From: Acidovorax sp. Leaf191
GTDB taxonomy: Bacteria > Pseudomonadota > Gammaproteobacteria > Burkholderiales > Burkholderiaceae_C
Direction: 5' to 3'
DNA: 64,000 nucleotides
NCBI RefSeq assembly: GCF_001424425.1
Contig: NZ_LMPT01000023.1
Location: 64,170-128,169, forward strand
Positions 13,727-64,000 of the stretch are shown in pieces. Position 1 is the first letter of the stretch. Each line of letters begins with the position of its first letter. A model generated the notes under the pieces. It was not told the DNA's origin. It worked only from the letters and a program-made list of their open reading frames with translations, and did not search any database. Made by a program: the position numbers and the translations under genes.

Positions 13727-13816
13727 GCGAAAACTCCTTAAAAGGAAAGGTTCAGGGACGAAGGAACACGAAAAAGTTTGAGTTGTCAGCCCAGGCCCGA
13801 AACAGGCATGGCCGAG

Positions 13817-13927
13817 GCCAGCGCTCCCGCGCAAGGGCCGCCCCGCCGCGCTGGGAGCGTCCCCATCCCGCATTGCGCAGCAATGCGAGAGAGAGAGGAA
13901 GGCGCGGAGCGACTCAGGGGGAGCTTC
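13817..13927 (-). repeat. Family A stop-codon-linked repeat, copy 1
   Basis: On the minus strand CTCCCCCTGAGTCGC begins a few bases after the TGA of the upstream YceI-like gene and is followed by the second motif GCGGCGGGGCGGCCCTTGCG. In this copy the pyrimidine-rich hairpin is altered to a TCTCTCTC run. Confidence 0.75.
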
Positions 13928-13929
13928 AT

Positions 13930-14505
13930 TCAGATCTTGCCCACGCCGGTGAGAGCGAGCTTGAACTTGACGGTCACGTCATCGGCCACCATCGACGTGT
14001 CGGCCCACTCGTTCTCGCCGATCTTGAACGCCAGGCGCTTGATGGGCAGGGTGCCGGTGGCCGTGGTGGTGGGGCCGCTTTGCGTGAGCGTCACGGGCAC
14101 GACCACGTTCTGGGCATTGCCCTTGATGGTGAGCTTGCCGGCCACTTCGAACTTGCCGCCGCCCAGCGCCTTGATGGCGGTGGACTCGAACTGCGCCTGC
14201 GGGAACTTGGCCACGTTGAACCAGACGGGCTTGGGCAGCTCGGCATCGGTTTCCTTGGAGCCCAGCGTGGCGCTGCCGGTGTCCACGGTGAGCGCGATCT
14301 TGCTGGTAGCCAGCTTGGCGGGGTCGAACGCCACCTGGGCGCTGAACTTCTTGAAATGCCCGTCGAGCGGCACACCCATCTGGCGCGCGGTGAACTGCAC
14401 TTCGCTCTGGGCGGGCACAAGCTGTTGCTGGGCCATGGCAGCCTGGGCGCTCACGACGAAGGCGGCGCCCAGCACGATGCGGGAGAAGGCGGAAGACAAG
14501 TTCAT
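13930..14505 (-). CDS. YceI-like periplasmic protein (second copy)
   Basis: A secreted 191-residue protein with the YceI beta-barrel pattern, distinct in sequence from its neighbour at 13148. The signal peptide is residues 1-27 (MNLSSAFSRIV to AQAAMA). The mature chain begins QQQLVPAQSEVQFTARQMGV and has the family's closing elements IKRLAFKIGENEW and VTVKFKLAL. It lacks the cysteine pair of the first YceI protein. The ATG at 14505 was chosen because the signal peptide starts there. It lies between cytochrome b561 and yceI on the same strand with 165-200 nt gaps filled partly by family A repeats. Confidence 0.88.
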   Translation of the reverse strand: MNLSSAFSRIVLGAAFVVSAQAAMAQQQLVPAQSEVQFTARQMGVPLDGHFKKFSAQVAFDPAKLATSKIALTVDTGSATLGSKETDAELPKPVWFNVAKFPQAQFESTAIKALGGGKFEVAGKLTIKGNAQNVVVPVTLTQSGPTTTATGTLPIKRLAFKIGENEWADTSMVADDVTVKFKLALTGVGKI

Positions 14506-14585
14506 TCGGAAACTCCGATCAAAGATTGTTGGAAAAGAGAGCAGTGCCGAGATGTGCCACTGAGGTATGACTGGGGCGAGCACTC

Positions 14586-14670
14586 GCCAGCGCACCCGTG
14601 GATCCGGCTTTGCCGGTCCACCGGGTGCGTCCCCCTTCGGAGGAAGACGCGAAGCGGCTCAGGGGGGCCT
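14586..14670 (-). repeat. Family A stop-codon-linked repeat, copy 2
   Basis: On the minus strand GGCCCCCCTGAGCCGC directly follows the TGA of the cytochrome b561 gene. The distal half is the hairpin variant with CCGGCAAAGCCGG flanked by GGTGGA and TCCACGG-like arms. Confidence 0.8.
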
Positions 14671-15252
14671 TCATCCTCCACCAGGCAGCATGCGTCGGAG
14701 CAGGCCATCGCGGTCGATGATCTGGTGCTTCAGCGCTGCCGCCACATGCAGCACCACCAGGCCCGCCATCGCGAACGCGGTGTACTGGTGCCACGGCTTG
14801 ATGGCCTCGGCCAGCTCCTTGCTCACCGGCACGAAGTCGGGAAGCTGCCACAGGCCCAGGAACACGATGGGAAAGCCCGCCGCAGAGCTGTACGCCCAGC
14901 CGATCAGCGGCACGGCGAAGAACAGCAGGTACAGCAGGTGGTGCGTGCCGTGGTGCGCCAGTTTTTGCCACCGCGGCATGGCGTTGTCGACAGCGGCAGG
15001 CAATGCTGGGGGGCGGTGCGTCAAGCGCCACAGCAGGCGCAGCACCGACAGCACCAGGATGGTCACGCCCGCCCACTTGTGCCAGTTGTAGAACTTGAGC
15101 CGCTGGGGCGAGAACGGCAGGCCGGTCATGTACAGGCCGAAGCCGAACAGTCCGATCAGCGCCAGACCCAGCACCCAGTGCAGGAGGATGGCGGTGCGCG
15201 TGTAGCGGCGTGGTGGTGCTGCGGCAGCAGGGGCTTGGGCGGTTGCAGTCAT
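14671..15252 (-). CDS. Cytochrome b561 (dihaem membrane electron carrier)
   Basis: A 193-residue inner-membrane protein with four hydrophobic helices and four candidate haem histidines: H25 (LLHWVLG), H58 (WHKWAG), H155 (PWHQY) and H169 (VLHVAAALKH). This matches the bacterial cytochrome b561 family, which passes electrons between quinol and periplasmic acceptors. The start could be the TTG at 15255 or the ATG at 15252; I use the ATG. The two downstream YceI-type genes make a quinone-linked periplasmic unit likely. Confidence 0.92.
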   Translation of the reverse strand: MTATAQAPAAAAPPRRYTRTAILLHWVLGLALIGLFGFGLYMTGLPFSPQRLKFYNWHKWAGVTILVLSVLRLLWRLTHRPPALPAAVDNAMPRWQKLAHHGTHHLLYLLFFAVPLIGWAYSSAAGFPIVFLGLWQLPDFVPVSKELAEAIKPWHQYTAFAMAGLVVLHVAAALKHQIIDRDGLLRRMLPGGG

Positions 15253-16974: not shown

Positions 16975-17082
16975 GGCGCGGCCAGAGGCGAGTGCCACCG
17001 TGGAACTGGCTTCGCCAGGCCACCGGTGGCGTCCCCCTCCCGCAGGAGAGGGGGAAGGCGCGAAGCGACTCAGGGGGTGATT
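16975..17082 (-). repeat. Family A stop-codon-linked repeat, copy 3
   Basis: It starts four bases after the hemX TAA with CACCCCCTGAGTCGC, then a CCTCTCC/GGAGAGG-type hairpin and a TGGCGAAGCCA hairpin variant. Confidence 0.8.
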
Positions 17083-17085
17083 CAT

Positions 17086-18201
17086 TTACCTTCCGGCTGC
17101 TGCGGTGGCCAGGGCGGACAAGGTTTCGTCCAGCCGCGGCTGCTCGGCCGCCTTCATGCTGGCCTGCGCGGTCTGCAGCGTGTTGGCCGCGTTCTGGGTA
17201 CGCCGCGATGCGGGGTCGAAGTATTTGTTCAAGGCCACGGTGGCGGCGGTCAGGTCGGCGCGGGCCGACTCGAACTGCCGCGCGAGCACGCCCAGCCGCG
17301 CGTTGAGCAGCTTGAGCTTGAGGTTCTCGCGCAGAAAGAAGGTCTGCTCGGGCGCCAGCAAGATCGCCTCGGGCTGGTCGATACGGCTCACGCGCACCAG
17401 GCCCCGGGCTTCGTCGCGCACCACTTCCCAACTGCGCTGCAGGGTGGCTTGCCACCACGCCATGCCCTCGGTGGGGGCGGGCGGGCTGCCGACAGCGGCC
17501 GGGCCGGTGGACAGGCGCTTGGTCGACGCTGCCTGCGCCACCGCGTTCAGCACGGGCAGCTCGTCCACCTGGCGCACCAGGTCGTCCAGGCGGGCCAGCA
17601 GGCCGGCGGTGTCGGTGACGGCCGCACGGGTCAGGCGGTCCAGGTCACGGCCGATGGCGCGCTGCACGGGGGCCAGGCGGGGTTGCGCTGCGCGCTCGAT
17701 GCGCTGGTTGGCGCTCTTGAGGGCCGCCACCAGCGGCTCCAGGCTGCCGGTGAGCTGGGCCTGCTGCTGGGCCAGGCGGATAGCGGACTCGATGTCCACC
17801 ACCAGGTTTTCATCGCGCGACCGCGACAGGCTTTGCATGAGCTCTTCGAGCTGGCTGCGCTGCAGGGCCACTTCGCTCACGCGCGCCTCGGCCACCGACA
17901 GGCGGGCGGCGGTGTCGCGCACCAGTTCTTCGGCTTGGCGGGCCATGGTGCGGGCCTCGATGGCCTGCGCGCCGGAGTCGGCGGACTGCCGGGCCAGTTG
18001 TTCCTGGATGGCGCTCAGGCGTTGCCACAACAGGCCGCTGCTGATCAGCGCGGCGGCGGCCACCGTGCCGAGCAGCAGCGTCACGGCGCCGCCGCGGCCT
18101 GTGGCGGCGGGTGCCGGTGCAGGTACGGGGATGGCCGCCGGTGCGGCCACGGGCGCGCCGGCGTGGGCTGGAGGCAGGTCGTGGGAAGGCGCGGAACTCA
18201 T
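17086..18201 (-). CDS. hemX: HemX, uroporphyrinogen-III C-methyltransferase-annotated membrane protein
   Basis: A 371-residue protein with a Pro/Ala-rich N-terminal tail, one transmembrane helix near residues 45-65 and a long helical periplasmic domain. Coiled-coil character is strong over about residues 65-150 (LSAIQEQLARQSADS onward), and a conserved domain follows with MAWWQATLQRSWEVVRDEARGL. This is the HemX of hemCDXY operons. It lacks methyltransferase motifs despite the name used in databases. Its ATG overlaps the hemD stop as ATGA, indicating translational coupling. Confidence 0.9.
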   Translation of the reverse strand: MSSAPSHDLPPAHAGAPVAAPAAIPVPAPAPAATGRGGAVTLLLGTVAAAALISSGLLWQRLSAIQEQLARQSADSGAQAIEARTMARQAEELVRDTAARLSVAEARVSEVALQRSQLEELMQSLSRSRDENLVVDIESAIRLAQQQAQLTGSLEPLVAALKSANQRIERAAQPRLAPVQRAIGRDLDRLTRAAVTDTAGLLARLDDLVRQVDELPVLNAVAQAASTKRLSTGPAAVGSPPAPTEGMAWWQATLQRSWEVVRDEARGLVRVSRIDQPEAILLAPEQTFFLRENLKLKLLNARLGVLARQFESARADLTAATVALNKYFDPASRRTQNAANTLQTAQASMKAAEQPRLDETLSALATAAAGR

Positions 18202-27004: not shown

Positions 27005-27093
27005 TGAAGCCCCCCTGAGCCGCTTCGCGCCTTCCCCCGAGGGGGACGGACGCCCCCAGCGCGGCGGGGCGGCCCTTGCGCGGGGGCACTGGC
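27005..27093 (+). repeat. Family A stop-codon-linked repeat, copy 4
   Basis: Directly after the TAG of the FlgO-like gene: AGCCCCCCTGAGCCGC, CCCCCGAGGGGGAC, then the GCGGCGGGGCGGCCCTTGCG motif. Confidence 0.85.
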
Positions 27094-27144
27094 TTGGTCC
27101 ATGCGAGTTCATAGACCAGTGGACTGTTGTCTCCTCCAGAAACA

Positions 27145-30420: not shown

Positions 30421-30533
30421 GTTTCAGCAATTGCCGCTACTCGACAGCATTTACCTCGCTGTTCGGGTGTTCGGGTATTCGGTCGCGGCGGCAAGGGGAG
30501 TGCGTCCACGTCGTGCGAAACCGTCGCGGCCTG

Positions 30534-30620
30534 ATCCAGCGTCCCCGCGCAAGGGCCGCCCCGCCGCGCTGGGGGCGTCCCCCCACCGTGGGGGAAGGCG
30601 CGAAGCGACTCAGGGTGGGC
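30534..30620 (-). repeat. Family A stop-codon-linked repeat, copy 5 (contains the stop codon)
   Basis: On the minus strand CCCACCCTGAGTCGC contains the TGA of the Rieske gene (30610-30612), followed by CCCCCACGGTGGGGGGAC and the GGCGGGGCGGCCCTTGCGCG motif. Confidence 0.85.
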
Positions 30621-31740
30621 TTCCCATGGCTTGGCGGTACCACTCGTGGAAGTGCTGCATGCCGTCTTCCATCGGGCTTTGGTAGGGGCCGACCTCGTTG
30701 TCGCCGCGCGCCAGCAGCGCCTTGCGGCCGGCGTCCATGCGTTCGCCGATCTCGTCGTCCTCGACGCAGGTCTCCATGTAGGCAGCCTTCTGCGCCTCGA
30801 CGAATTCGCGCTCGAACGCAGCGATCTCTTCGGGGTAGTAGAACTCCACCATGTTCATGGTCTTGGTCGGGCTGATGGGGTGCAGCGTGGACACGGTCAG
30901 CACGTGCGGGTACCACTCCACCATGATGTGCGGGTACAGCGTGAGCCAGATCGCGCCGTGCTTGGGCGGCTTGCCCTCGCGGAAGGCGAGCAGTGCCTCA
31001 TGCCAGCGCTCGTACACGGGGCTGCCGGCCTTGCCCAGGCGGTTGGCCACGCCCACGGTCTGCACCGAGTAGTTGTTGCCGAATTCCCAGCGCAGGTCGT
31101 CGCACGTGACAAAGCTGCCGAGGCCCGGGTGGAAGGGGCCGACGTGGTAGTCCTCCAGGTAGACCTCGATGAAGGTCTTCCAGTTGTAGTTGCACTCGTG
31201 CAGTTCCACATGGTCGAGCACGTAGCCGTCGAAGCTGAGGTCGGCGCGCGGGCCCATCTGGGCCAGGTCGGCGGCCACGTCGTAGCCGTTGTCTTCGAAG
31301 AGGAGCCCGTTCCACTCCCGCAGCTTGTAGTTGTTCAGATCCAGGCAGGGGTCGTGCGAGAAGTGGGGCGCGCCCAGCAGTTCGCCCTTCGGGCTGTACG
31401 TCCAGCGGTGCAGGGGGCACACGATGTTGCCGCCCGCATGGCCCTTGCCCTGGCCTTGCAGCGAGCCCTTGCCCTTGAGCATGACGGCCTGGCGGTGGCG
31501 GCAGACGTTGGAGACCAGCTCGATGCCCCCCTGGGCGTTGCGCACCAGCGCTCGGCCCTCGCCCTCCTGAGGCAGGGCGTAGTAGTCGCCGGCATTCGGC
31601 ACGCTCAGTTGGTGCCCCACATAGCGGGGCCCGCGCTGGAAGATGGTGGCTAGCTCGCGCTGGAACAGCGCCTCGTCAAAGTAGCTTGAAACTGGTAGTT
31701 GGCTTGCGGCCTGCTGCAGTTGAAGACTTAAATCAGACAT
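30610..31740 (-). CDS. Rieske non-haem iron oxygenase, alpha-subunit type
   Basis: A 376-residue ring-hydroxylating-type oxygenase. The Rieske cluster ligands are C80, H82, C108 and H111 (VCRHRQ and VCPLHRW). The mononuclear iron site has H199 and H204 in EDYHVGPFHPG, with an aspartate later. The protein resembles choline/carnitine or aromatic oxygenase subunits, but the substrate is not assignable. No reductase gene is adjacent. The C-terminal residues (MGSPP) and the stop codon come from a family A repeat, suggesting the original end was replaced. The leader carries a terminator-like hairpin. Confidence 0.88.
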   Translation of the reverse strand: MSDLSLQLQQAASQLPVSSYFDEALFQRELATIFQRGPRYVGHQLSVPNAGDYYALPQEGEGRALVRNAQGGIELVSNVCRHRQAVMLKGKGSLQGQGKGHAGGNIVCPLHRWTYSPKGELLGAPHFSHDPCLDLNNYKLREWNGLLFEDNGYDVAADLAQMGPRADLSFDGYVLDHVELHECNYNWKTFIEVYLEDYHVGPFHPGLGSFVTCDDLRWEFGNNYSVQTVGVANRLGKAGSPVYERWHEALLAFREGKPPKHGAIWLTLYPHIMVEWYPHVLTVSTLHPISPTKTMNMVEFYYPEEIAAFEREFVEAQKAAYMETCVEDDEIGERMDAGRKALLARGDNEVGPYQSPMEDGMQHFHEWYRQAMGSPP

Positions 31741-35622: not shown

Positions 35623-36705
35623 ATGGATCGCCGTTCGCTCATCAAGCACTCCGGTCTGGCGGGTGTACTGGCCACAGGCGTTGCGCCGGCCGTGCATGCC
35701 CAGCCCACGCTGCGGTGGCGCATAGCATCCAGTTTCCCGCGCTCCTCGGACAACATCTTCGGCGGCGCCGAGGTGTTCGCGAAGGCCGTGCGCACCCTGT
35801 CCAACGGCAAGTTCGAGATCTCGGTCCACCCCGGCGGAGAACTCATGCCCCCGTTCGACGTGGTGGATGGCGTGCAGAGCGGCGCGGTGGAGATGTGCCA
35901 CGCCGTGCCGTATTACTTCTACGCCAAGAACCCGGCGTTCGCGCTGGGTTGTGCGGTGCCTTTCGGCTTCAATGCCCGCCAGATGAGTGCGTGGATGCTG
36001 CATGGCAACGGGCGCAAGCTCATGAACGAGTTCTACGCCGGCTACAACATCGTGAGTTTTGCCTGCGGCAACACAGGCACGCAGATGGGCGGCTGGTTCC
36101 TGCGCGAGATCAAGACGCCTGCGGACTTCAAAGGACTGAAGATCCGGGTGGGTGGCGGCTTGGTGGCCGAGGTCATGCAGAGGCTGGGCGCCATTCCGCA
36201 GAGCCTGCCGGGCGGCGAGATCTACCAGGCGCTGCAAAAGGGCGTGATCGATGCGGCCGAGTGGATCGGCCCTTACGATGACCAGAAGCTGGGCTTCAAC
36301 AAGGTGGCGCCTTACTACTATTATCCCGGCTGGTGGGAGGGCGGCCCCGAGGTCGACCTCTATGTGAACAAGAAGGCCTACGAGTCGCTCACGCCAGACT
36401 ACCGCTTCATCATCGAGGCTGCGGCATCGATAGCGCACACGGACATGCTCGCCCGGTACGACGCGCTCAATCCCAACGCGCTCAAGCAACTGGTGGCCGC
36501 CAAGACCAAGGTGCTCCCGTTCTCGCAGACCGTGATGGACGCTGCGTTCAAGGCATCGATGGAAGTCTTTGCGCAGAACGACTCCAGGAGCCCCGAGTGG
36601 AAAAAGATCTACGGCGACATGCGCAACTTCCAGCGCGACCAGATCCTGTGGTTCCGGTTTGCGGAAGCGCGGTATGACACGTTCATGTCGGCGCAAAAGA
36701 TTTAG
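35623..36705 (+). CDS. TRAP transporter substrate-binding protein (DctP type), paralogue 1
   Basis: A 360-residue periplasmic binding protein. The N-terminus MDRRSLIKHSG to AVHA (residues 1-26) is a Tat-like signal with RR at 3-4. The mature part starts QPTLRWRIASSFP and contains GGNxGTQMGGWF-type and WIGPYDDQKLGF motifs of the TakP/DctP family that binds 2-oxo or carboxylic acids. It is very similar to the next gene along its whole length, a tandem duplication. The membrane subunits DctQM are 4 kb away on the other strand and may serve both. Confidence 0.92.
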   Translation: MDRRSLIKHSGLAGVLATGVAPAVHAQPTLRWRIASSFPRSSDNIFGGAEVFAKAVRTLSNGKFEISVHPGGELMPPFDVVDGVQSGAVEMCHAVPYYFYAKNPAFALGCAVPFGFNARQMSAWMLHGNGRKLMNEFYAGYNIVSFACGNTGTQMGGWFLREIKTPADFKGLKIRVGGGLVAEVMQRLGAIPQSLPGGEIYQALQKGVIDAAEWIGPYDDQKLGFNKVAPYYYYPGWWEGGPEVDLYVNKKAYESLTPDYRFIIEAAASIAHTDMLARYDALNPNALKQLVAAKTKVLPFSQTVMDAAFKASMEVFAQNDSRSPEWKKIYGDMRNFQRDQILWFRFAEARYDTFMSAQKI

Positions 36706-36795
36706 CTCCCCCTGAGTCGCCTGCGGCGCCTTCCCCCTGAGGGGGACGCACCCAGCGGCCTGGCAAAGCCAGTTCCGCGGGTGCACTCGCATGGG
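36706..36795 (+). repeat. Family A stop-codon-linked repeat, copy 6
   Basis: Directly after the TAG of TRAP paralogue 1: CTCCCCCTGAGTCGCCTGC, then CCCCCTGAGGGGGACGCAC and a CTGGCAAAGCCAG hairpin. Confidence 0.85.
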
Positions 36796-37042
36796 GCGCG
36801 CCAGTTTCTGCGGCTGGTGATGGCGCTTGCGCGCTGTGACTCCGCAGAGCCATCGTTGGCGCTCTGAATCGCGATGCTTGCAGAACCCTGAAGCCCGTAT
36901 GCGCGCGCCGGGCTTTCACGGGAAAACCCCCAAATCCGCGGGGGGGCATGTTCCTACAATCAATCGGGCTAGAAGGTCCTTGGCTGCGGGCGACCCGCTT
37001 GCGTGCCAGGGTGTGCAATCACAAGTATTTCGGAGAGAACTC
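36796..37042. promoter_or_regulatory. Upstream region of TRAP paralogue 2
   Basis: GGGAAAACC (36920-36928) and TACAAT (36955-36960) recur at nearly the same spacing as upstream of paralogue 1, so the promoter was probably duplicated with the gene. CGGAGAGAAC supplies the ribosome binding site before ATG 37043. Confidence 0.45.
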
Positions 37043-38125
37043 ATGGATCGTCGTTCAATCATCAAGCAGGCAGGTATTGCCGGTGTGCTGGCCGCCGGAG
37101 TGGCACCAGCAGTGCACGCGCAAGCCGCAGTGCGCTGGCGCCTGGCATCGAGCTTCCCCAAGCCCCTGGACACCATCTACGGTGGCGCTGAAGTGTTCGC
37201 CAACGCCGTCAAGGCGATGTCCGGCGGCAAGTTCGAGATCTCGGTCCACGCGGGTGGCGAGCTGATGCCTCCCTTCGGCGTGGTCGACGGCGTGCAGCAG
37301 GGCTCCGTCGAAATGGCGCACACCGTGCCTTACTACTTCTACGGCAAGAACCCCGCGTTCGCCATCGGTTCGGCCATTCCTTTCGGCATGAACGCCCGCC
37401 AGATGAACGCCTGGATGCTGCACGGCAATGGCCGCAAGCTGATGGACGAGTTCTACGGCGGCTACGGCATGCTCAGCTTTGCGGGCGGCAACACCGGCAC
37501 GCAGATGGGCGGCTGGTTCCGCAAGGAAATCAAGACCGCAGCCGACCTGAAGGGCCTGAAGATGCGCCTGGGCGGCGGCTTGGTGGGCGACGTGATGACC
37601 AAGATGGGCGTGGTGCCCCAGAGCATCCCTGGCGGCGAAATCTATCAAGCGCTGGAAAAGGGCACGATCGACGCGGCCGAGTGGGTGGGCCCGTACGACG
37701 ACCAGAAGCTGGGCTTCAACAAGGTCGCTCCGAACTACTACTACCCCGGTTGGTGGGAAGGCGGTCCTGAAGTGGACTTCTTCGTCAACAAGAAGGCCTT
37801 CGATGCCCTGTCGTCCGAAAACAAGGCCATCATCGCCGCCGCTTCGGCACAGGCTTCGGTGGACATGCTGGCCAAGTACGACGCCCGCAACCCCGTCGCC
37901 TTGAAGCAACTGATCGGCGCCAAGACCAAGCTGCTGCCTTTCAGCAAGGAAATCCTGGACGCATCGTTCAAGGCCTCGCTGGCCGTGTACGAAGAAAACA
38001 GCGCCAAGAGCCCCGAGTGGAAGAAGATCTACACCGACTTCGCCGCATTCCAGAAGGACCAGGTGGCATGGTTCCGCGTGGCCGAAGGCCGGTTCGACAG
38101 CTACATGCAGACCATCAAGCTCTGA
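37043..38125 (+). CDS. TRAP transporter substrate-binding protein (DctP type), paralogue 2
   Basis: 360 residues, the same length as its upstream twin, with signal MDRRSIIKQAGIAG to AVHA and the same landmarks (GGELMPPFGVVDGV, GNTGTQMGGWF, EWVGPYDDQKLGFNKVAP). Differences are scattered, including a more Lys-rich surface, so the pair may have diverged in ligand. A strong terminator follows. Its codon choice (more AAG, CCT and TCC) looks like that of a highly expressed gene. Confidence 0.92.
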   Translation: MDRRSIIKQAGIAGVLAAGVAPAVHAQAAVRWRLASSFPKPLDTIYGGAEVFANAVKAMSGGKFEISVHAGGELMPPFGVVDGVQQGSVEMAHTVPYYFYGKNPAFAIGSAIPFGMNARQMNAWMLHGNGRKLMDEFYGGYGMLSFAGGNTGTQMGGWFRKEIKTAADLKGLKMRLGGGLVGDVMTKMGVVPQSIPGGEIYQALEKGTIDAAEWVGPYDDQKLGFNKVAPNYYYPGWWEGGPEVDFFVNKKAFDALSSENKAIIAAASAQASVDMLAKYDARNPVALKQLIGAKTKLLPFSKEILDASFKASLAVYEENSAKSPEWKKIYTDFAAFQKDQVAWFRVAEGRFDSYMQTIKL

Positions 38126-43993: not shown

Positions 43994-44011
43994 AGGATTT
44001 CATATGGCTGG

Positions 44012-44048
44012 ATATTGGCAGGGTGCCTACGATAGCCCAATTCAATAT
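44012..44048. promoter_or_regulatory. Candidate tup operator
   Basis: ATATTGG (44012-44018) and CCAAT...CAATAT (44037-44048) form spaced inverted half-sites in the AT-rich gap between the divergent regulator and tupB. ModE-type sites often contain TATAT halves, so this is plausible but weak. Confidence 0.3.
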
Positions 44049-44786
44049 ATGTCCACGCTGACCGAAAGCGCGAGCACAGCGCTGCAACTCACCCTCTCCT
44101 TCGACCCGGTCCTGTGGGCCATCGTGGGCCGCTCCCTGTCGGTCAGCGCCACCGCCTGCCTGCTGGCCTGCGGCCTGGGGCTGGTGCTGGGGGCATGGCT
44201 CGGGGTGGCGCGGTTTGCGGGGCGCGGCGCGGTCCTGGCCGTGCTCAACACCCTGCTGGCCGTGCCGTCCGTGGTGGTGGGGCTGGTGGTGTATCTGCTG
44301 CTGTCGCGCAGCGGGCCGCTCGGGTCCCTGGGCTGGCTGTTCAGCTTCAAGGCCATGGTGCTGGCCCAGGCCATCCTGGTGCTGCCGGTGGTCACCGCGC
44401 TCACGCGGCAGGCGGTGGAAGACGCCGAGCGCGCGCACGGCGAGCAGCTGCGCTCCCTGGGCGCGGGCACGCTACTGCGCAGCCTGCTGCTGGCGTGGGA
44501 CGAGCGCTACGCGCTGCTCACCGTGCTGATCGCATCGTTCGGGCGCGCCATCTCGGAGGTGGGCGCCGTGATGATCGTTGGCGGCAACATCGACGGCTTC
44601 ACCCGCGTCATGACCACCGCCATCGCGCTCGAGACCAGCAAGGGCGACCTGCCGCTGGCGCTGGCGCTGGGCATGCTCCTGCTGGCCGTGGTGCTGGCGC
44701 TCAACGTGGTCATCGCCCTGGTGCGCCGATGGCGCGAGCGGGTGGACGGTGCGGCCTCCGGCATGCCGGTGGGGGTGGCCGCATGA
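44049..44786 (+). CDS. tupB: Tungstate ABC transporter permease (TupB)
   Basis: A 245-residue inner-membrane permease with six helices. SLSVSATACLLACGLGLVLG opens the membrane part, and SFGRAISEVGAVMIVGGNIDG near 160 is the conserved loop of molybdate/tungstate permeases that meets the ATPase. ATG 44049 fits family N-termini. ATG 44004 has a better ribosome site but would add 15 odd residues and cover the putative operator. Its stop overlaps tupC as ATGA. Confidence 0.92.
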   Translation: MSTLTESASTALQLTLSFDPVLWAIVGRSLSVSATACLLACGLGLVLGAWLGVARFAGRGAVLAVLNTLLAVPSVVVGLVVYLLLSRSGPLGSLGWLFSFKAMVLAQAILVLPVVTALTRQAVEDAERAHGEQLRSLGAGTLLRSLLLAWDERYALLTVLIASFGRAISEVGAVMIVGGNIDGFTRVMTTAIALETSKGDLPLALALGMLLLAVVLALNVVIALVRRWRERVDGAASGMPVGVAA

Positions 44787-45568
44787 GCGCAGTGCACACC
44801 ACCCAAGGCGTGGAGATGGCCGGCGCGCCAGGCCAGCCAGCCGCCAACGACGGCGCCCCGTGGGTGGACCTGCGCCACGTCTCGGTGCGCTATGGCGCCG
44901 TGGTGGCGCTGGCGAATGTCAGCCTGTGCATCGTGCCCGGCGAGCGCGTGGCCCTGGTGGGCGCCAACGGCAGCGGCAAGAGCACGCTGCTGCGCGTGCT
45001 GCACGGCCTGGCCGATGCCAACGGCGGCGGAGGCCTGCACTGCAACCGCACGCTGCGCCAGGCCATGCTGTTCCAGCGGCCGCACATGCTGCGCACCAGC
45101 GCCCTGAACAACGTGGCGCTGGCCCTGTGGCTGCGCGGCACGCGCTGGCGCGATGCCCGGTTGGCCGCGCTCACGGCGCTGCAGCGCGTGGGTCTGCAGG
45201 GCATCGCCGCGCAGAACGCGCGCACCCTGTCGGGCGGGCAGCAGCAGCGGCTGGCGCTGGCCCGCGCCTGGGCGCTGCGGCCGGATGTGCTGCTGCTCGA
45301 CGAGCCCACCGCCAGCCTGGACCCGCACGCCAAGCGCGAGGTCGAGGCCCTGATGGCCGACTTCGCCGCCAGCCACGGCGCTGGCGGTCCCGCCCACCCG
45401 GTGACCATGGTGTTCAGCAGCCACAACCTGGGCCAGGTCAAGCGCCTGGCCAGCCGCGTGATCTACATGGAACACGGCCGCCTGGTGGCCGACCTGCCGG
45501 TGCACGACTTCTTCAACGGCCCCCTGCCCGAGGCCGCCCGTCTGTTTGTCAAAGGAGAACTGGTATGA
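44783..45568 (+). CDS. tupC: Tungstate ABC transporter ATP-binding protein (TupC)
   Basis: A 261-residue ATPase. Walker [10 protein letters not shown] at 60-68, signature LSGGQQQR at 149-156, Walker B VLLLDEP at 169-175. A Q-loop region with QAMLFQRPHML is present. It energises TupB. The start overlaps tupB and the stop overlaps tupA, so all three are translationally coupled. Confidence 0.93.
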   Translation: MSAVHTTQGVEMAGAPGQPAANDGAPWVDLRHVSVRYGAVVALANVSLCIVPGERVALVGANGSGKSTLLRVLHGLADANGGGGLHCNRTLRQAMLFQRPHMLRTSALNNVALALWLRGTRWRDARLAALTALQRVGLQGIAAQNARTLSGGQQQRLALARAWALRPDVLLLDEPTASLDPHAKREVEALMADFAASHGAGGPAHPVTMVFSSHNLGQVKRLASRVIYMEHGRLVADLPVHDFFNGPLPEAARLFVKGELV

Positions 45569-46479
45569 AAAGAACTGCCCCCCACGCTCGCCACCCCGTG
45601 CCGTCGCTGTCGCCCGAGGGCTCCGCTTTCTCGTCCCGGGGTGGCCCGGTGATGAAGAATTTCAAGCTTTTGGGCCCTGTACCGCGCATTCAGCAAGCGC
45701 TGGTAGCTATTATTTTTGTAGCGTCTGGCGCGGCTGCTGCGCAGAGCATCACGATGGCGTCCACCACATCTACCGAGCAGTCGGGGCTGTTCGGCCACCT
45801 GCTGCCCGAGTTCAAGAAGACCAGCGGCATCGACCTGAAGGTGGTGGCCCTGGGCACGGGCCAGGCGCTGGACATGGCGCGCCGGGGCGACGCCGACGTG
45901 CTGTTCGTGCACGACCAGGCAGCCGAGGAGAAATTCGTGGCCGATGGCTGGGGCGTGAAGCGCTACCCCGTCATGTACAACGACTTCATCCTCGTCGGCC
46001 CCAAGGACGACCCGGCAGGCACGCGCGGCAAGGACATCGTGCAGGCGCTGCAAAAGCTCGCGGCGGGCAACGGCAACTTCGTCTCGCGCGGCGACAAGAG
46101 CGGCACGCACGCTGCCGAGCTGCGCTACTGGAAGCTTGCGGGCGCCGATGCCGCCAAGGGCAGCGGCTACAAGGAATGCGGCTGCGGTATGGGTCCCGCG
46201 CTCAACATCGCGGCGTCGAGCAACGCCTACGTGCTGGCCGACCGCGGCACCTGGCTCAACTTCAAGAACCGCGCCGACCTGGCCATCCTGGTCGAGGGCG
46301 ACACCAAGCTCTTCAACCAGTACGGCGTGATGGTGGTCAACCCTGCCAAGCACCCGCACGTCAAGGCGCAGGACGCGCAGAAATTCGTCGACTGGGTCGT
46401 GTCGCCCGCGGGCCAGCAGGTCATCGCCAGCTACAAGATCGGCGGCGAGCAACTGTTCTTCCCGAACGCGAGCAAGTGA
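45565..46479 (+). CDS. tupA: Tungstate-binding periplasmic protein (TupA)
   Basis: A 304-residue binding protein whose oxyanion motif TTST (67-70, in MASTTSTEQSG) and DVLFVHDQAAEEKF region mark TupA rather than ModA. AAAGGAG precedes ATG 45565, which overlaps the tupC stop. The N-terminus is unusual: about 30 polar residues precede M30, and residues 34-53, the hydrophobic core of the signal peptide (LLGPVPRIQQALVAIIFVAS), are encoded by a family B repeat. Cleavage is likely before Q60. A second start at ATG 45652 (M30) would give a normal signal length. Confidence 0.92.
   Translation: MKRTAPHARHPVPSLSPEGSAFSSRGGPVMKNFKLLGPVPRIQQALVAIIFVASGAAAAQSITMASTTSTEQSGLFGHLLPEFKKTSGIDLKVVALGTGQALDMARRGDADVLFVHDQAAEEKFVADGWGVKRYPVMYNDFILVGPKDDPAGTRGKDIVQALQKLAAGNGNFVSRGDKSGTHAAELRYWKLAGADAAKGSGYKECGCGMGPALNIAASSNAYVLADRGTWLNFKNRADLAILVEGDTKLFNQYGVMVVNPAKHPHVKAQDAQKFVDWVVSPAGQQVIASYKIGGEQLFFPNASK
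45664..45723 (+). repeat. Family B hairpin repeat, copy 6, inside tupA
   Basis: GCTTTTGGGCCCTGTACCGC, then AAGCGCTGGTAGCTATTATT and TTTGTAGC, read in frame as the signal peptide. Confidence 0.8.
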
Positions 46480-46562
46480 ACCCCCCTGAGGCGCTGCGCG
46501 CCATCCCGCCAGGGGGACGCCACCCGTGGCCCGGTGAAGCCGGCTCCACGGGGGCGCTGGCC
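46480..46562 (+). repeat. Family A stop-codon-linked repeat, copy 7
   Basis: Directly after the tupA TGA: ACCCCCCTGAGGCGC, CCCGCCAGGGGGACGCCACC and a CCGGTGAAGCCGG hairpin with CCCGTGG/CCACGGG flanks. Confidence 0.85.
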
Positions 46563-46615
46563 TGCGGCGCGCCGCTCTGCTAACCCCCCGGGTGAAGGCA
46601 TCGTCCGGTGGGGAC

Positions 46616-60630: not shown

Positions 60631-60686
60631 AAAAATGGCCGCTACCGCTTGATGGGAAAGCGCTAGCAGCTATCAATTAAATAGCA
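60631..60686 (+). repeat. Family B hairpin repeat, copy 8
   Basis: ATGGCCGCTACCGCTTGATG, then AAGCGCTAGCAGCTATCAAT and TAAATAGCA, runs directly into the MoxR start codon at 60687. Confidence 0.85.
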
Positions 60687-63907: not shown

Positions 63908-64000
63908 CTCCCCCTGAGTCGCTTTGCGCCTTCCCCCTGAGGGGGACGCCTCCGGTGGACCGGCGAAGCCGGATCCACGGTGGCGCTGGCGGGGGCACCG
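63908..64000 (+). repeat. Family A stop-codon-linked repeat, copy 8
   Basis: Directly after the coxG TGA: CTCCCCCTGAGTCGC, CCCCCTGAGGGGGACGCC, then CCGGTGGACCGGCGAAGCCG with its complementary arm. Runs to the window edge. Confidence 0.85.

What the first reader, a model, noticed from the sequence alone, without database searches (positions are those of the whole stretch)
45664..45723. A dispersed repeat encodes the TupA signal peptide core
Family B copy 6 lies in frame and supplies residues 34-53 of TupA, the hydrophobic stretch needed for export. An about 30-residue polar extension precedes it. This looks like exaptation of an intergenic repeat into a secretion signal.
Basis: partly seen in the sequence, partly recalled or inferred. 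Interest (0 to 1): 0.75.

Follow-up and report, generated by a model that had tools for sequence, protein, structure and literature searches.

The report
Dispersed DNA repeat encodes signal peptides
A short DNA repeat scattered hundreds of times through an Acidovorax genome is read as protein inside the likely export signal of a tungstate-type binding protein, and the same repeat plays the same part in several unrelated exported proteins.

Summary
Family B is a ~55-nt dispersed repeat (427 pattern matches in the own genome, 2 in the control). A profile trained without tupA finds the tupA copy at 45676-45722 (30.2 bits, E 2.5e-7). It is in frame, covers the most hydrophobic stretch of TupA, and ends before homology to solved binding proteins begins.

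The exaptation reading is supported with changes. (1) The state is old: tupA loci of Acidovorax, Simplicispira, Diaphorobacter, Ottowia, Curvibacter and Rhodoferax carry it. (2) It recurs: a TPM-domain protein and an amidohydrolase use the same repeat in the same frame across the genus; a cupredoxin and a SIMPL protein use it reversed. (3) The polar extension is a second repeat, 87 nt, inserted separately. (4) Simple insertion is not shown: sites are shared between species, no clean empty site was seen, one base changed across the copies of this lineage, and repeat-free SIMPL orthologues keep nearly the same residues.

Export and the start codon are untested. I rate it a new variant of a known kind: in-frame repeats (RPE) and a Yersinia repeat that partly forms a signal peptide are in print.

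The parts
45664..45723 (+).
   Evidence: 30.2 bits, E 2.5e-7, profile trained with tupA masked
45697..45729 (+). Codons 45-55, ALVAIIFVASG, hydrophobic core of the likely signal peptide
   Evidence: hydropathy maximum of the protein, mean 2.56
45565..45651 (+). Polar extension, 87 nt; copy of a second dispersed repeat (X)
   Evidence: 8 other places in 2.06 Mb at E<1e-3, 4 of them at E<1e-7; exactly +87 nt in G000, G008, G016 against G007 and G001
45551..45557 (+). Shine-Dalgarno-like AAAGGAG before the ATG at 45565
   Evidence: read; the same site precedes tupA in orthologues without the extension
45652..45654 (+). Inner ATG, start of MKNFKLLGPVPRIQQ
   Evidence: corresponds to the only start in orthologues without X
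45565..46479 (+). tupA-like gene for a solute-binding protein
   Evidence: PF12849 144.5 bits; NCBIfam TupA 243.7 bits, below cut-off 400; 3lr1 E 1.7e-73
44004..44786 (+). tupB-like permease
   Evidence: NCBIfam TupB 173.9 bits, below cut-off 320; ABC_perm1 above cut-off
44783..45568 (+). tupC-like ATPase of the transporter
   Evidence: PF00005 97.2 bits
42869..43993 (-). Divergent regulator with HTH and PBP-like domains
   Evidence: PF00126 and PF12727
2755..2809 (+). family-B copy
   Evidence: 49.7 bits
10246..10299 (-). family-B copy
   Evidence: 42.0 bits
18738..18792 (-). family-B copy
   Evidence: 47.6 bits
30367..30419 (+). family-B copy
   Evidence: 31.0 bits
33325..33376 (+). family-B copy just before an ATG
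   Evidence: 46.3 bits
55366..55419 (-). family-B copy
   Evidence: 42.0 bits
60632..60686 (+). family-B copy
   Evidence: 59.7 bits

Best explanation
A dispersed ~55-nt repeat of Comamonadaceae has an open frame that reads roughly K-W-P-L-P-L-x-x-x-A-L-A-A-I-x-x-I-A. Where it lies near the 5' end of a gene for an exported protein and in that frame, it serves as a ready-made hydrophobic core of a Sec signal peptide. In tupA this state is older than the genus and is inherited vertically. The signal should work in the ordinary way: basic start MKNFK, repeat-encoded core, cleavage near AAA-AQS, mature binding domain from about residue 58-60, so that nothing of the repeat stays in the working protein. 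The polar extension is a separate 87-nt repeat put between the Shine-Dalgarno/ATG and the old start. Shown: the repeat, its frame and place, the pattern in orthologues, and use of the same repeat in other genes. Inferred: export, cleavage, and that the repeat came before the signal peptide.
For: Profile match well above controls. Of 110 tupA loci, 57 score above the highest control of 12.7 bits, 4 at 8.3-12.7, 8 below 8.3, 41 have no match; carriers lie in several genera. Of 74 distinct rows with known copy number, 48 of 53 from genomes with at least 20 copies exceed 8.3 bits and 0 of 21 from genomes with at most 7 copies have a match. The same repeat in the same frame scores above 12.7 bits before the mature part in 28 of 30 TPM-protein loci and 24 of 28 amidohydrolase loci; genomes poor in the repeat (G005 and G031 counted) or without it there (G112) have ordinary GC-rich signal peptides in the loci seen. 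Reversed copies lie in signal peptides of a cupredoxin (49 bits) and a SIMPL protein (33 bits). A protein profile still recognises the core in L108, L104, L067, L087 and L109, which have no DNA match (16.3-29.5 bits, shuffled maximum 8.6).
Against: Co-occurrence may be shared ancestry: only 2 independent pairs on supported branches. Direction is not shown: no clean empty site was found. Repeat-free SIMPL orthologues, 8 of 30, have nearly the same residues without an indel, also in repeat-rich genomes such as G010, G014 and G015. Residues of the repeat part are only weakly constrained: pN/pS 0.74, against 0.12 in the mature part (27 loci). Five tupA rows from repeat-rich genomes do not exceed the shuffled maximum. 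No signal-peptide predictor or experiment.
Confidence: 0.68

Rival explanations
1. The repeat is a DNA motif kept or copied in place at fixed chromosomal sites (a protein-binding site, an uptake-type signal or a target of gene conversion). Existing signal peptides were rewritten at DNA level because they tolerate the encoded residues; the motif acts on the signal peptide and no mobile element was exapted.
For: All 23 of 23 pairings of the eight window copies with alignable sites in four relatives are occupied. At model column 13 orthologous copies agree less (0.48) than paralogous copies in one genome (0.76), and C:G at that column is 129:32 in G000 and 150:23 in G008 while G outnumbers C in the other 31 genomes with a G match. 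SIMPL: nearly the same residues with and without repeat-like DNA. Synonymous difference is lower in the repeat part of tupA (0.33) than in the mature part (0.41).
Against: Elsewhere the repeat adds length: DapF has ten more residues than 5ha4 at the copy. Orthologous copies as a whole are more alike (0.79) than paralogous ones (0.66), as vertical descent predicts. A ~55-nt element with ~21 strongly conserved columns is hard to build by point change at hundreds of sites (inference).
Confidence: 0.25
2. The repeat family descends from a signal peptide, tupA or another, that was copied around the chromosome.
For: One frame stays open in many copies and tupA carries it in several genera.
Against: Many copies have stops or charged residues in that frame; reversed copies also lie in signal peptides; the tupA copies are not closest to the consensus (19-44 bits in Acidovorax with the extremes lower, against 59.7 for the copy at 60632).
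Confidence: 0.05
3. Likeness by chance: AT-rich hydrophobic codons that happen to resemble the repeat.
For: Hydrophobic residues use T-rich codons, which bring a few shuffles up to 8.3 bits.
Against: 30.2 bits in tupA, up to 44.1 in an orthologue, against at most 8.3 in 2200 codon shuffles and 12.7 in mature parts; three unrelated proteins share it.
Confidence: 0.02
4. On the start codon: TupA starts at the inner ATG 45652 and the polar extension is only an untranslated or separately read leader.
For: In L017 and L033 (same species) a tandem copy of X puts the first ATG out of frame, so the inner ATG must start TupA there. The inner start gives a signal peptide of usual length.
Against: The Shine-Dalgarno site precedes 45565. 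All 8 distinct single-insert loci keep the frame (84 or 87 nt) without a stop, and pN/pS is 0.48 in frame against 0.94 and 0.96 in the other frames. G006, the genome of L017, is 89% complete with 8% contamination and has two tupA copies on one contig.
Confidence: 0.4

Closest known systems
YPAL/RU-2 repeat of Yersinia at locus YPO1552 (Delihas 2007, PMC2759123; review PMC2229807; passages of both seen)
   Different: There 168 nt and one putative exported protein without known function, with residues 1-30 from the repeat; here ~55 nt, conserved genes with repeat-free orthologues to compare, several unrelated genes, and both orientations.
Rickettsia palindromic elements, RPE (known here through passages of PMC2229807; original not read)
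   Same: Repeats between genes and in frame inside conserved protein genes; here DapF, NDH-2, AroE, TilS, CobU, EarP and others.
   Different: RPE are reported inside coding regions of enzymes; use as a signal-peptide core over a genus is not in the passages seen. No sequence comparison with RPE was made.
BRE, Betaproteobacterial repeat element (PMC3110155, passages seen)
   Same: Betaproteobacterial short repeat, also reported in Acidovorax, Polaromonas and Rhodoferax, mostly between genes, some inside coding sequence.
   Different: ~90 bp and 69% GC in Bordetella, at most 29 copies; family B is ~55 nt, AT-richer, hundreds of copies. BRE letters were not in the passages, so repeat X or the GC-rich window repeats may still be BRE.
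REP sequences with RAYT transposases, and DNA uptake sequences (recalled)
   Same: Hundreds of short palindrome-like copies per genome; uptake sequences also sit in coding frames.
   Different: Y1 transposase genes (PF01797) occur in repeat-poor Acidovorax genomes too (G002, G005, G030, G031) and are missing from two repeat-rich ones (G019, G025). Uptake was not tested.

Membership tests
RPE/MITE-type in-frame repeats | dispersed copies, some in frame inside conserved protein genes | tested here: met
   174 copies in 2.06 Mb; 19 of 20 tested open frames across copies had a Pfam match
RPE/MITE-type in-frame repeats | mobility: empty sites and target-site duplications | tested here: not met
   no clean empty site for family B among five genomes; two sites differ in occupancy without a simple 55-nt length change
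RPE/MITE-type in-frame repeats | stem-loop kept by paired changes | tested here: not met
   top mutual-information column pairs in 165 copies are not complementary
Sec signal peptide | basic start, hydrophobic core, small residues before the mature part | tested here: met
   MKNFK..ALVAIIFVASGAAAAQ, core hydropathy 2.56
Sec signal peptide | export and cleavage | not testable with these tools
   needs an experiment
TupA | NCBIfam TupA score at or above cut-off | tested here: not met
   243.7 bits against 400; hence called TupA-like
REP/RAYT system | RAYT present where the repeat is present and absent where it is not | tested here: not met
   PF01797 does not follow the repeat; the model does not separate RAYT from IS200-type genes
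Rfam RNA families | match at gathering score | tested here: not met
   only a tRNA at 1691-1772 in the window
BRE | sequence match to the BRE consensus | not tested
   consensus not in the passages seen

The most novel reading that the evidence does not exclude
A DNA repeat evolves in concert across hundreds of sites and in doing so writes and rewrites signal peptides. Unrelated exported proteins share one DNA-encoded hydrophobic core; and when the repeat changed one base over most copies in the lineage of G000 and G008, the signal peptides of TupA, the TPM protein and the amidohydrolase changed Ala to Pro at the matching place in parallel.
Probability: 0.4. Interest if true: 0.87.

Novelty: new variant of a known kind. 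Interest (0 to 1): 0.7.

Why it matters
Signal peptides are loose in sequence, and where new ones come from is mostly open. Here one repeat supplies the core in several conserved proteins, with repeat-free orthologues as natural controls, so that origin and replacement of signal peptides can be tested directly. A parallel residue change in unrelated proteins, driven by a DNA repeat, would be a clear case of protein evolution steered at DNA level in bacteria.

Tried and rejected
Chance likeness: rejected by 2200 codon shuffles. Known structural RNA: none in the window but a tRNA. Stem-loop kept by paired changes: not supported, so no hairpin mechanism is claimed. RAYT as driver: no association. 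A protein search with ten translated segments gave 3 proteins, relatives of the amidohydrolase and the TPM protein already in hand; only the 8000 best candidates were scored. A first profile iterated over tupA orthologues was dropped because it trained on the thing to be tested; one search replaced it. The first N-terminus table was in a wrong frame; one search replaced it, and the identities printed are void. The independent-pairs test had too little support. A Fisher test used typed, rounded numbers and takes G000 and G008 as independent; it is not used.

Literature: six pieces of the repeat of 16-20 letters occur in none of the held papers. Searches gave the Delihas papers and BRE as nearest. 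Papers were seen as listings, except passages of PMC3110155, PMC2229807 and PMC2759123. Most subscription journals are not held.

Rows left out: 12 of 98 rows were set aside as ambiguous in the two-state count; from the 45 open-frame rows, 20 protein frames were chosen for Pfam besides the amidohydrolase; and only the 28-30 fetched loci were scored, not every match.

Full report
The gene. Bases 44004-46479 hold an ABC transporter operon, permease, ATPase and solute-binding protein, which are TupB-, TupC- and TupA-like, beside a divergent regulator with HTH and PBP-like domains. TupA scores 243.7 bits on the NCBIfam model, under its cut-off of 400. Its closest solved relative is the tungstate-binding protein 3lr1, with homology from residue 58. 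Named relatives place the genome in Acidovorax.

The repeat. A profile of 55 columns was built from five window copies and iterated over 864 kb with tupA masked. It finds eight copies in the window at E<=2.5e-7; tupA is the sixth, 30.2 bits, 45676-45722. A pattern of its core with up to 3 mismatches has 427 matches in the own genome and 2 in the reversed control. In 2.06 Mb (window and 2.0 Mb of stretches) the profile has 174 copies at E<0.05, 165 at E<1e-3 and 146 at E<1e-6. With up to 2 mismatches the pattern is frequent (38-413) in 32 of 36 Acidovorax genomes and rare (1-5) in G002, G005, G030 and G031; of 24 genomes of other families 22 have none and 2 have one.

The repeat in tupA. Residues 45-55 are the most hydrophobic stretch of the protein and nearly all repeat-encoded. 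Two searches gave 110 tupA loci. Of these, 57 score above the highest control of 12.7 bits, 4 score 8.3-12.7, 8 score less and 41 have no match; as 98 distinct loci the numbers are 47, 4, 6 and 41. In most of them the match ends at the same distance from the mature part. Named carriers above 12.7 bits are found in Acidovorax, Simplicispira, Diaphorobacter, Paracidovorax, Ottowia, Curvibacter and Rhodoferax. Three Acidovorax with 3, 5 and 5 copies in the genome (L051, L052, L059) and the Limnohabitans loci have other signal peptides. Of 74 distinct rows with a known copy number, 48 of 53 from genomes with at least 20 copies exceed the shuffled maximum of 8.3 bits (not L004, L028, L058, L063, L071), and 0 of 21 from genomes with at most 7 copies have a match. 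On a tree of the mature protein the carrier label needs 16 changes against 32.6 in shuffles. Only two independent pairs lie on supported branches, so common descent may explain the association. A protein profile trained on 22 repeat-bearing cores recognises L108, L104, L067, L087 and L109, which have no DNA match (29.5, 23.8, 22.9, 21.6 and 16.3 bits; shuffled maximum 8.6). The signal peptide thus seems able to outlast the repeat; L104 and L067 lie in genomes with 6 and 2 copies, the other three were not counted. In 27 Acidovorax loci the repeat part has pN 0.247 and pS 0.334, the mature part 0.050 and 0.409: weak constraint on residues, and somewhat fewer silent changes than in the mature part.

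The extension. Bases 45565-45651 resemble 8 other places in 2.06 Mb at E<1e-3, 4 of them at E<1e-7, and are exactly 87 nt extra in G000, G008 and G016 against G007 and G001. Eight distinct tupA loci carry one copy, all in frame (84 or 87 nt), with pN/pS 0.48 in frame and 0.94 and 0.96 in the other frames. L017 has a tandem form in which only the inner ATG can start TupA. The start is open, with a lean towards 45565 in this strain because of its Shine-Dalgarno site.

The same in other genes. Two more likely exported proteins of the own genome carry the repeat in the same frame: an amidohydrolase (C1:14651) and a TPM-domain protein (C9:69459). Of 30 TPM loci from the genus, 28 score above 12.7 bits, L209 10.3 and L210 has no match. 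Of 28 amidohydrolase loci, 24 do, L235 scores 5.6 and L236, L237 and L241 (G112, G031, G005) have none and show GC-rich signal peptides. Reversed copies lie at the signal peptides of a cupredoxin (49 bits), a SIMPL protein (33) and, weakly, a secretin (20); a weak forward copy lies in a cyclophilin (21). Copies also lie in frame in other proteins: DapF, NDH-2, a MacB-like protein, AroE, TilS, CobU, CobD, a DAO oxidoreductase, EarP (two), NAD synthase and more; 19 of 20 tested frames had a Pfam match, L250 none. DapF has ten residues more than 5ha4 at its copy.

How it spreads. Where flanks could be paired among five genomes, the eight window copies are occupied in relatives in 23 of 23 pairings. 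Two other sites differ in occupancy, one lacking in G000 and one seen only in G007, without a clean 55-nt length change. Orthologous copies share 79% and paralogous copies in one genome 66% (56 and 164 pairs). Column 13 runs the other way, 48% against 76%. Genome-wide C:G at that column is 129:32 in G000, 150:23 in G008 and 33:61 in G016; G outnumbers C in the other 30 genomes with a G match. In the three signal peptides (whose printed 'c13' index is shifted for tupA and the amidohydrolase; I read the letter from the printed strings) G000 and G008 have C in 6 of 6. G016 has T, C and G. The other counted genomes have C in 3 of 66: 0 of 23 tupA, 0 of 23 TPM, 3 of 20 amidohydrolase (G010, G024, G034). 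The change turns an Ala codon (GCG) into Pro (CCG). These genomes are close relatives, so this is one lineage seen at several loci, and the three amidohydrolase exceptions speak against a strict rule. In SIMPL, 19 of 30 loci score above 12.7 bits and 8 have no match; several of the latter have nearly the same residues with GC-rich codons, also in repeat-rich genomes. Either repeat DNA decayed while the protein was kept, or the DNA was rewritten in place; the data do not decide.

Verdict. What goes beyond YPO1552 of Yersinia and RPE is the set of conserved, comparable genes, the recurrence in unrelated proteins and both orientations, and the lineage-wide change that reaches into signal peptides.

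Noticed in passing
G000, G008, G016 genome-wide; profile column 13 of family B: Most copies have C (CTACCGC) where the other Acidovorax genomes have G (CTAGCGC), also at orthologous sites: a sign of concerted evolution.
   Followed up: partly
amidohydrolase loci of G010, G024, G034 (L223, L218, L217): These signal peptides have the C-type repeat although their genomes are G-type; gene transfer is one possible reason.
   Followed up: no
L268:5210-6175, L162:10568-12043, L295:6078-6923, L257:6757-7752, L249:13088-14368, L244:14738-15925: Family-B copies in frame in DapF, NDH-2, AroE, TilS, CobU and (two copies) EarP.
   Followed up: partly
L017 / L033, 5' end of tupA: Tandem copy of repeat X; the upstream frame ends just after the inner tupA ATG, as in coupled translation. 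G006 also has two tupA copies on one contig.
   Followed up: partly
window 13798-14675, 16981-17086, 27009-27109, 30516-30626, 36726-36795, 46482-46568, 63910-63996: A GC-rich repeat group with CCCCCTGAG and AGGGGGACGCC motifs, unlike family B; could be compared with BRE.
   Followed up: no
window 35623-37942: Two neighbouring stretches 1420 nt apart with 75-85% likeness over several blocks, probably a tandem gene duplication.
   Followed up: no
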